From positions 1,612,001-1,676,000 of the forward strand of contig NZ_CP009520.1 in the NCBI RefSeq assembly GCF_000969905.1: a DNA stretch of 64,000 bases, in the 5' to 3' direction. Position 1 is the first letter of the stretch; every line of letters starts with the position of its first letter. This DNA comes from Methanosarcina vacuolata Z-761 (lineage in GTDB: Archaea > Halobacteriota > Methanosarcinia > Methanosarcinales > Methanosarcinaceae). This document shows positions 2,391 through 3,723 of this stretch, piece by piece. Below the pieces are notes generated by a model that was given only the letters and a program-made list of their open reading frames with translations, did not search any database and was not told the DNA's origin. The position numbers and the translations under genes were made by a program.

Positions 2391-2480
2391 CTAGTTGGCA
2401 GGGATTGAGCCCCTATTCTCTAATCCCTACCTGCGATCCAACCCGAGATTAAGAGGAAACCCTTACTCTTAATCTCACAT
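2391..2480 (+). ncRNA. Structured RNA-like element, copy A
   Basis: Two hairpins separated by an invariant single-stranded segment. Hairpin 1 pairs GGCAGGGATT with AATCCCTACC around a 15-nt loop, with one C-A mismatch. The linker CTGCGATCCAACCC is identical in copies B and C. Hairpin 2 is a perfect 11-bp stem, GAGATTAAGAG with CTCTTAATCTC, closing a loop that contains GAAACCC. An AT-rich stretch at about 2351-2363 could be a TATA element, but I cannot fix a start site. The strand is inferred from the element order and the GAAACCC loop. No match to a known RNA family is claimed. Confidence 0.45.
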
Positions 2481-2482
2481 CG

Positions 2483-2612
2483 AAGTAGATGGTAGGTCGA
2501 GTCCCTATTCTCGGATCCCTACCTGCGATCCAACCCAGAGATTGAGAGGAAACCCTATTACTCTCAACCATCTCATTTTATAATGACATGAGTGATATAT
2601 ATCATAACCGAC
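2483..2612 (+). ncRNA. Structured RNA-like element, copy B
   Basis: Directly follows copy A. Hairpin 1 pairs GGTAGG with CCTACC, with an inner CGAG/CTCG. The linker CTGCGATCCAACCC is unchanged. Hairpin 2 is TTGAGAG/CTCTCAA, where an A-T pair of copies A and C is replaced by G-C on both sides. A 3' extension ends in ATATATCATAACCGAC, which is also present in copy C and in part in copy D. Pairing kept despite sequence change argues for selection on RNA (or cruciform) structure. Confidence 0.45.
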
Positions 2613-2954
2613 CCAAAAAACAATTTGTGATTTTAATTTTGCTTGGGCTAATTATTTTTTATATCCACGAAATTTTCAATGACATTAAAAATTTTGCAGG
2701 TATTAATTCAGTTGAACCTTTGCAAATATCATCATATTAAGTAATAAATAAGTGTAAGTATTGTCTTATTAAAACATACTGACTAAGTTTTTCATATTAC
2801 TGACTAAGATCAAAATGATCTGAAAAAAGACTATAAGTATTAATAACCTATCCAAAAAGTAGTTGCCTGCTATACTTTTTATAATACGCAATATGCAAAA
2901 TCGGAACGGATGCCCGGATATTTAAACCTATTGTAACTTTTTGATGTGCATAAA

Positions 2955-2995
2955 AGAAGGAATTCTTTTATTATCAGAGGTAATTGTCGGACAGC
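2955..2995. repeat. Dispersed ~40-nt intergenic repeat, copy 1
   Basis: The segment GAATTC, 10 nt later AGGTAATT-N-TCGG-N-CAGC, recurs with the same spacing at about 63626-63658 near the other end of the window. Similarity ends abruptly on both sides. It could be the tip of a decayed mobile element. No transposase is visible next to either copy. Confidence 0.35.
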
Positions 2996-3188
2996 TTATA
3001 AAGACTTTGGGATTTAACTTCGTTCTTTAAAAACCTGCTTTTCTCGTATAGGAGTCTGGTGCATCTAACTTCATGCATAACCTGCCCAAAAGTAGAAGAA
3101 ATTTATAAACATAATGTTGAGGTAGAGCTGAACGAAAACAAAAAGAGGATTTACTCTTCACGGCAATTAATGGAGATAGTGCTTACAT

Positions 3189-3252
3189 AATAAATAAATA
3201 AATAAATAAATAAATAAATAAATAAATAAATAAATAAATAAATAAATAAATA
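3189..3252. repeat. AAAT tetranucleotide microsatellite
   Basis: About 16 uninterrupted copies of a 4-nt AAAT unit. Such a perfect short repeat is prone to slippage and may vary in copy number between strains. It lies between structured-RNA copies B and C and outside any gene. Confidence 0.9.
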
Positions 3253-3330
3253 TACTTAGGAACGGTCATAAGGTTTATTAGAAATAAGGACATTATGAAA
3301 AATAACAAATAGCTTTATAAATTAATTCAA

Positions 3331-3463
3331 AAGTAGATGGTAGGGTTACCGAGTCCCTATTCCCGGATCCCTACCTGCGATCCAACCCAAAGATTAAGAG
3401 GAAACCCTATTACTCTTAATCTATAATCTTATAGTAGCGTGGAAATATATATCATAACCGACC
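3331..3463 (+). ncRNA. Structured RNA-like element, copy C
   Basis: Hairpin 1 pairs GGTAGGG with CCCTACC (7 bp) with an inner CCG/CGG. The linker CTGCGATCCAACCC is identical to copies A and B. Hairpin 2 is a perfect 10-bp stem, AGATTAAGAG with CTCTTAATCT, closing a loop GAAACCCTATTA. The 3' part ends in ATATATCATAACCGAC like copy B. A TATA-like TTTATAAAT lies at 3314-3322; the usual spacing would put the start inside the first stem, so the real promoter is uncertain. Confidence 0.45.
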
Positions 3464-3619
3464 AAAAAAACAGTTCGGATTCTGAATTTTCAAACAGCTC
3501 TTGTATTTGTTTGGCTGTGTAATTTTTAATGATCTTCAAATATTTGATCAAAACATAAAATTTGATGCATTAAATTGGCAGTAAGGCAGTAAATGCCATA
3601 AAAATTTCTTTTTTGAAAA

Positions 3620-3723
3620 TTCTCGAGCCCCTTCATGCAATTCAATCCGGGAATTAAGAGTCCTCTATATTCTTAATCTGCATTTACTTTTATAAGCACA
3701 TGGACATTAGAGTCATAACCGAC
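3620..3723 (+). ncRNA. Structured RNA-like element, decayed copy D
   Basis: Only part of the pattern remains: ATTAAGAG pairs with TTCTTAAT in the hairpin-2 position, preceded by CAATCC-like linker sequence. The 3' signature survives as TATAAGCACATGGACATTAG followed by TCATAACCGAC. Hairpin 1 is not clearly present. It reads as a degenerate relative of copies A-C. Confidence 0.3.

What the first reader, a model, noticed from the sequence alone, without database searches (positions are those of the whole stretch)
2391..3723. Three close copies and one decayed copy of a structured RNA-like element in one gene-free region
Copies A (2391), B (2483) and C (3331) share two hairpins and an identical linker CTGCGATCCAACCC. 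Hairpin 2 shows a compensatory change: the A-T pair in ATTAAGAG/CTCTTAAT (A, C) becomes G-C in TTGAGAG/CTCTCAA (B). Hairpin 1 also keeps pairing while changing. B, C and D share a 3' tail with TCATAACCGAC. Such conservation outside genes suggests an RNA with function, perhaps a sibling small RNA family. I cannot match it to a named family.
Basis: partly seen in the sequence, partly recalled or inferred. Interest (0 to 1): 0.65.

Follow-up and report, generated by a model that had tools for sequence, protein, structure and literature searches.

The report
Multicopy Methanosarcina small RNA family
These repeats are genes for a previously unnamed family of small regulatory RNAs that nearly all Methanosarcina carry in several copies, and the RNA's invariant middle stretch matches, across species, the start region of a gene set for exporting polysaccharide, so archaeal RNA-based control of the cell surface becomes testable.

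Summary
Rfam has no match. The linker GGGUUGGAUCGCAGGUAGGG is nearly invariant. A scan for its complement in six genomes returned, outside the RNA genes, 13 sites, 9 of them in one leader: that of a polysaccharide-flippase operon. Pairing there (-30 to -39 kcal/mol) beats all scrambled linkers in 16 of 16 leaders, and one conserved site abuts the ribosome-binding sequence of the first ORF. Best reading: sibling trans-acting sRNAs that control this operon by linker pairing. Transcripts and regulation are not shown experimentally. New member of a known kind.

The parts
2483..2576 (-). Copy B: small RNA gene; hairpin 2 (RNA 5' part), linker GGGUUGGAUCGCAGGUAGGG, hairpin 1
   Evidence: cmsearch R1 93.2 bits, E 1.2e-19; promoter upstream
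2595..2612 (-). Promoter of B (GTCGGTTATGATATATAT, read on the minus strand)
   Evidence: exact match; conserved before 86 of 95 copies
2389..2480 (-). Copy A: second RNA of a head-to-tail pair, no promoter of its own, probably co-transcribed from the promoter of B
   Evidence: cmsearch R1 88.8 bits, E 1.5e-18; promoter absent as in other second members of pairs
3331..3427 (-). Copy C: small RNA gene
   Evidence: cmsearch R1 109.3 bits, E 1.5e-23
3445..3462 (-). Promoter of C (GTCGGTTATGATATATAT)
   Evidence: exact match, position weights
3584..3684 (-). Copy D: decayed copy, hairpin 2 recognisable, linker and hairpin 1 degraded
   Evidence: R2 17.4 bits, E 0.023
3713..3723 (-). Remnant of the promoter of D: box GTCGGTTATGA kept, TATA stretch lost
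   Evidence: sequence compared with the promoter consensus
3298..3302 (-). Oligo-T run about 29 nt beyond the 3' end of C, probable termination site (inference)
   Evidence: sequence; T-rich stretch at the same offset in many copies
3255..3302 (+). Element E of copy C (CTTAGGAACGGTCATAAGGTTTATTAGAAATAAGGACATTATGAAAAA): conserved partner element, possibly a convergent promoter; one end overlaps the T-run
   Evidence: found beyond the RNA 3' end in more than 30 copies at several loci, often at +29; role inferred
2216..2262 (+). Element E of the B-A pair (CTTAAAAACAATCATAAACTTTATTAAAGCTGAGTACATTGTAAGAA)
   Evidence: by comparison of the sequence with the element

Best explanation
The copies are genes of a sibling family of trans-acting small RNAs of about 95-130 nt, transcribed from the minus strand out of their own promoters (B and A as one tandem transcript, C alone; D is dead). 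Two hairpins hold a nearly invariant, G-rich linker. The linker base-pairs with the leader of an operon that encodes a ~120-aa protein and a polysaccharide flippase: several sites lie in the ~600-nt leader and one directly upstream of the ribosome-binding sequence of the first ORF. Pairing there most likely blocks (or otherwise controls) translation of the operon and so the export of a surface polysaccharide. Shown here: genes, strand, promoter, covarying stems, distribution, conserved complementarity. Inferred: that the RNAs are made, that they bind this mRNA in the cell, and the sign of the effect.
For: Strand: 24 G.U against 3 A.C cells in an alignment not fitted to structure; in the larger set 45:4 in hairpin 2 and 37:8 in hairpin 1. 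Structure: 97.1% cells paired in A4, 0/500 shuffles; 16 of 24 pairs with changes on both sides in A6. Promoter: 86/95 copies, TATA end mostly 22-26 nt from hairpin 2; of the 9 without it 6 are second members of tandem pairs. Distribution: 28/31 genus genomes with R1, 30/31 with R2, genera g4 and g5. Target: scan of six genomes for the complement, up to 3 mismatches, gave 13 sites outside RNA genes, 9 in the flippase leader, at least one in each genome; 4 hits in all for the reversed pattern. Best pairing energy in 22 leaders -29.6 to -39.0, all below the minimum (-28.2) of 124 background windows, while four paralogous flippase genes without such a leader gave -19 to -24. 0/100 scrambled linkers reach the observed energy in 16/16 leaders. 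Other RNA segments and the antisense of the leader do not pair well. RBS-adjacent site: scrambled-linker p at most 0.003 in 13 of 15 leaders. Flippase: PF01943.
Against: No expression data were available. The leader sites share descent, so 22 leaders are not 22 independent coincidences. In single-sequence folds the linker is only partly open (mean unpaired probability 0.33-0.76), and the 3' part of the 20-nt linker is the 5' arm of hairpin 1, which would have to open for full pairing. Single-sequence z-scores are not better on the minus strand. Genera g4, g5 and strain G023 carry the RNA but no close flippase orthologue, so other targets must exist there. In G001 the RBS-adjacent site is weak (-14.2, p 0.033).
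Confidence: 0.6

Rival explanations
1. The RNAs are real small RNAs but act by binding a protein: repeated AAUAGGG loops in both hairpins and in tandem copies would titrate an RNA-binding protein, as CsrB does for CsrA; the flippase complementarity is incidental.
For: Both loops carry AAUAGGG in nearly all Methanosarcina copies, and copies are repeated in tandem and around the genome.
Against: The H1 loop is not kept in g4, g5 and type II copies, whereas the linker is among the best-conserved parts throughout; the linker complement is concentrated in one leader.
Confidence: 0.17
2. The flippase leader is not a regulated target but a sponge: a long leader with several sites that mops up the small RNAs, which regulate other mRNAs.
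For: Up to 7 GATCCAA cores per leader against about 0.1 in shuffles; the RNAs persist in genomes without the flippase orthologue.
Against: One site is fixed next to the ribosome-binding sequence of the first ORF across divergent leaders, which suits direct regulation. No other recurrent target was found.
Confidence: 0.12
3. The repeats are DNA elements (mobile hairpin elements such as IS200/IS605-derived MITEs, or protein-binding sites) that are not used as RNA.
For: Several copies per genome at many sites; hairpins with compensatory changes could also form in single-stranded DNA.
Against: Strand-specific G.U wobbles are not expected for DNA; invariant loops and linker; a promoter at fixed spacing; syntenic copies kept for the depth of the genus beside KorB/decarboxylase.
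Confidence: 0.04
4. The plus strand is the functional RNA and the tail is its 3' end.
For: Element E looks like a plus-strand promoter; single-sequence z-scores are somewhat better on plus.
Against: G.U asymmetry, alifold -21.4 on minus against -12.7 on plus, promoter position and tandem logic.
Confidence: 0.05

Closest known systems
sRNA162/sRNA171 of Methanosarcina mazei (PMC3510493)
   Same: Methanosarcina small RNA with stem loops and a single-stranded linker that masks a ribosome-binding site; may act on a small upstream ORF.
   Different: 191 nt with three stem loops and a 39-nt linker that is its most variable part; single copy in M. acetivorans and M. barkeri, beside an ArsR-type regulator. 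Here: about 95-130 nt, the linker is among the most conserved parts, several to 14 matches per genome, other neighbours.
sRNA154 and sRNA41 of M. mazei (review PMC5867862)
   Same: Trans-acting Methanosarcina sRNAs that reach ribosome-binding sites of several mRNAs.
   Different: No report of a multicopy family in the texts that could be read; sequences could not be compared because those papers are not held.
Nine cold-induced sRNAs with a 'cold box' in Methanolobus psychrophilus (PMC5378194)
   Same: A set of conserved sRNAs in one methanogen genome that share a motif at the promoter; some intergenic regions there have mutually antisense sRNAs.
   Different: Their sequences are in a supplement that could not be read; the covariance models find no member in the rest of the family apart from g4, g5 and one weak hit.
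Sibling sRNAs of bacteria such as Qrr or LhrC (from general knowledge)
   Same: Several near-identical sRNA genes per genome, with common promoter logic and a common seed.
   Different: Archaeal, other structure, TATA-type promoter; no sequence relation was looked for.

Membership tests
Archaeal intergenic (trans-encoded) small RNA | Own promoter at the right distance | tested here: met
   TATA motif in 86/95 copies, mostly 22-26 nt from hairpin 2
Archaeal intergenic (trans-encoded) small RNA | Conserved RNA secondary structure with compensatory changes, strand-specific | tested here: met
   the short closing stem P1 is not supported (72% paired)
Archaeal intergenic (trans-encoded) small RNA | No conserved protein-coding content | tested here: met
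   Stems and promoter are conserved at DNA level; the 50-aa ORF at 2588-2740 is broken in relatives by in-frame stops and frame changes
Archaeal intergenic (trans-encoded) small RNA | Transcript detected | not testable with these tools
   No RNA-seq available
Archaeal intergenic (trans-encoded) small RNA | Conserved complementarity to a trans-encoded mRNA | tested here: met
   Flippase leader
sRNA162/sRNA171 family | One or two copies beside an ArsR regulator, 191 nt, three stem loops | tested here: not met
   up to 14 matches per genome, other neighbours, two hairpins (paper text)
Any Rfam 15 family | Score at or above gathering threshold | tested here: not met
   0 matches in the window; only sub-threshold matches in four divergent loci with E up to 5
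CsrB/RsmZ-type protein sponge | Repeated loop motif kept in all members while the rest drifts | tested here: not met
   H1 loop motif lost in g4, g5 and type II copies, linker kept
IS200/IS605-type non-autonomous element | Recent movement, ends and empty sites | not tested
   Not searched; syntenic conservation and G.U asymmetry argue against it
Methanolobus cold-box sRNAs | Sequence homology | tested here: inconclusive

The most novel reading that the evidence does not exclude
Each unit is a self-opposing pair: a sense sRNA from the minus-strand promoter and a plus-strand RNA from element E, whose sequence repeats the target site (CCUACCUGCGAUCCAACCC) and would act as a dedicated, genetically linked decoy for all sibling sRNAs, so that an archaeal genus runs a dosage-controlled, genome-dispersed sRNA/antisense circuit on a surface-polysaccharide operon.
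Probability: 0.12. Interest if true: 0.85.

Novelty: new member of a known kind. Interest (0 to 1): 0.62.

Why it matters
Few archaeal sRNAs have a known target, and I found no report of a multicopy sibling sRNA family in archaea with a defined target among the papers that could be searched. This one is nearly genus-wide, comes with a promoter motif and a specific, species-spanning pairing prediction next to a ribosome-binding sequence, and occurs in a genus with genetic tools. It makes a direct test of sRNA control of archaeal surface polysaccharide possible, and gives a covariance model with which to annotate an unannotated gene family in nearly all Methanosarcina genomes.

Tried and rejected
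Plus-strand RNA with a 3' tail: rejected by G.U asymmetry and promoter position. Small membrane protein on the plus strand (ORF 2588-2740, over the tail): rejected because relatives have stops and frame changes there. Mimic of the 16S rRNA 3' end (divergent linkers read GGUUGGAUCA): only a short motif with different topology, not pursued. Closing stem P1 (GUA/UAC): only 72% paired with many A.C cells, rejected. Riboswitch or leader: rejected, copies lie downstream of or between genes with no common neighbour function. Genome-wide regulon of the promoter motif: beyond B and C no clear enrichment over control in the own genome. Other recurrent targets: the four sites outside RNA genes and flippase leaders show no common gene. 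The GATCCAACC-rich locus at first looked like chance repeats; comparison across species changed that view. Papers on M. mazei sRNA discovery (PNAS 2009) and sRNA154 are not in the library.

Full report
What is there. The window contains, between a KorB-type 2-oxoacid oxidoreductase gene (ends 1833, plus) and an ornithine/DAP/arginine-type decarboxylase gene (4064-5236, minus), about 2.2 kb without convincing genes. Copies A, B and C are as described: the 14-mer CTGCGATCCAACCC is exact in the three and nowhere else in the 4.56-Mb genome, and repeat search gives the same three copies. D is a weak copy.

How widespread. A blastn search with B found matches in 30 of 31 genomes of the genus at E up to 1, most of them with several copies at 80-90% identity, often with a tandem half-copy beside them. 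A covariance model from 38 copies (R1) found 28 of 31 genus genomes and, in 186 genomes of the order, only two further genera of the same family. A model from 94 diverse copies (R2) found 30 of 31 genus genomes, up to 14 matches per genome, and six genomes of the two relatives, plus one weak hit in a fourth genus. Named records include Methanosarcina spelaei, Methanosarcina sp. Ant1, DH2, MSH10X1 and KYL-1, and Methanosarcinaceae metagenome bins. Rfam 15 has no match at its thresholds.

Which strand. In the alignment A3, made without structure, 24 cells are G.U if the minus strand is read as RNA and 3 if the plus strand is. In the larger set the ratio is 45:4 for hairpin 2 and 37:8 for hairpin 1 (this alignment leans to the model). 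Alifold energies are -21.4 (minus) and -12.7 (plus). Folds of single copies do not decide it. Of the nine copies without it, six are the downstream members of head-to-tail pairs, which explains why A has none. D keeps the box GTCGGTTATGA but has lost the TATA stretch, and only hairpin 2 is still recognisable.

Structure. RNA 5' to 3': hairpin 2 (GAUURAGAG...CUCUYAAUC, loop UAAUAGGGUUUC), linker GGGUUGGAUCGCA, hairpin 1 (GGUAGGG...CCCUACC with an inner UCGAG/CUCGA and loop AAUAGGGA). In A4, 97.1% of cells pair, six pairs change on both sides, and no shuffle of 500 reaches any measure; in A6, 16 of 24 pairs change on both sides. The short closing stem P1 is not supported. In divergent members (g4, g5, strain G023, and a second type found beside a divergent first-type copy at a syntenic locus) hairpin 1 drifts in loop and length, but hairpin 2 and the linker (GGGGUUGGAUCA) stay.

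Neighbours. Copies lie in many intergenic places in both orientations; the most constant place is the KorB-decarboxylase gap of this window; another syntenic pair lies next to ribose-1,5-bisphosphate isomerase-like, FmdE-like and regulator-like genes (these names are from my reading of the sequences, only the window neighbours and the flippase operon were tested with Pfam). No common neighbour function: independent genes, not leaders.

A target. The linker search also returned a cluster of near matches at G000:C2:2438859-2439419. That stretch is the leader of an operon with a 121-aa ORF without Pfam match and a 516-aa polysaccharide flippase (PF01943). The leader is conserved in many species and holds up to seven GATCCAA cores, against about 0.1 in shuffles. 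Controls: (a) in six genomes, a scan for CTACCTGCGATCCAACCC with up to three mismatches gave, outside RNA genes, 13 sites of which 9 lie in this leader, with at least one in every genome; the reversed pattern gave 4 hits in all; the four others have nothing in common. (b) The best duplex of the 20-nt linker with 22 leaders is -29.6 to -39.0 kcal/mol; 124 background windows reach -28.2 at best; four paralogous flippase genes without such a leader reach -19 to -24. (c) In 16 of 16 leaders none of 100 scrambled linkers reaches the observed value. (d) Other parts of the RNA and the antisense of the leader do not pair well. (e) A site of the type CCGAUCCAA(C/U)CC lies 2-3 nt before the AGGUCG sequence that precedes the AUG of the first ORF in 15 leaders, p at most 0.003 in 13. 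In the lineage of G007-G009 the leader has diverged beyond blastn reach, yet pairing sites remain.

How it most likely works. Inference from this anatomy: the RNAs are made from a common promoter type, so they respond together, with dosage set by copy number; the linker pairs with the leader of the flippase operon, including a site at the ribosome-binding sequence, and most likely lowers translation of the first ORF and, by coupling, of the flippase. This resembles the mode shown for sRNA162 of M. mazei, whose linker masks a ribosome-binding site and which may act through an upstream small ORF (PMC3510493). It is not a member of the sRNA162 family: that RNA has three stem loops, 191 nt, a variable linker and one or two copies.

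Limits. No RNA data; leaders share descent; the linker is only partly open in predicted folds; genera g4 and g5 and strain G023 lack a close flippase orthologue, so other targets must exist or the function differs there. The copy counts depend on model thresholds and assembly quality.

Element E. On the strand opposite to the RNA, beyond its 3' end, more than 30 copies at several loci, including g5, carry TTAGGAACGGTCATAAGGTTTATTAAAAATAAAGACATTATGAAAAA or a relative of it, often at exactly +29; the window has two (3255-3302, 2216-2262). It may be a convergent promoter or part of the termination region; this is open. The Methanolobus psychrophilus report of nine conserved, cold-induced sRNAs with a shared promoter box and of mutually antisense sRNAs (PMC5378194) is a parallel worth checking, not a demonstrated homology.

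Noticed in passing
window 3255-3302 and 2216-2262 (plus strand): Conserved element E beyond the 3' end of the RNA units, present in more than 30 copies across genera; promoter-like on the opposite strand.
   Followed up: partly
L014:2521-2886 (minus), G000:C2 about 2438520-2438885: A conserved ~120-aa ORF without Pfam match between the leader and the flippase gene, probably translationally coupled to it.
   Followed up: partly
L132 (G023:C3:47500-66500): Strain G023 has shortened and half copies (GGTTTCCTCTCAATC..GGGTTGGATCA without the 5' arm of hairpin 2), one beside TTTTTCCGTTTTTCTG repeats, without the usual promoter.
   Followed up: no
L077:3304-3403 and 3830-3927; same in L091, L099, L102, L109: A second type of the RNA (linker GGGGUUGAAUCACA, hairpin GGGAGCC...GGCUCCC) next to a divergent copy of the first type, in a syntenic place near a ribose-1,5-bisphosphate isomerase-like gene.
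   Followed up: partly
window 3183-3252: Long (AAAT)n microsatellite just before element E of copy C.
   Followed up: no
window 3770-3851: Tandem repeat of about 16 nt (AGTAGCTTTAGTCCTT), about five units.
   Followed up: no
G000 whole genome: GATCCAACC occurs only 10 times in 4.56 Mb (about 35 expected from equal base use), which hints at avoidance of GATC; the linker nevertheless keeps GATC in nearly all copies.
   Followed up: no
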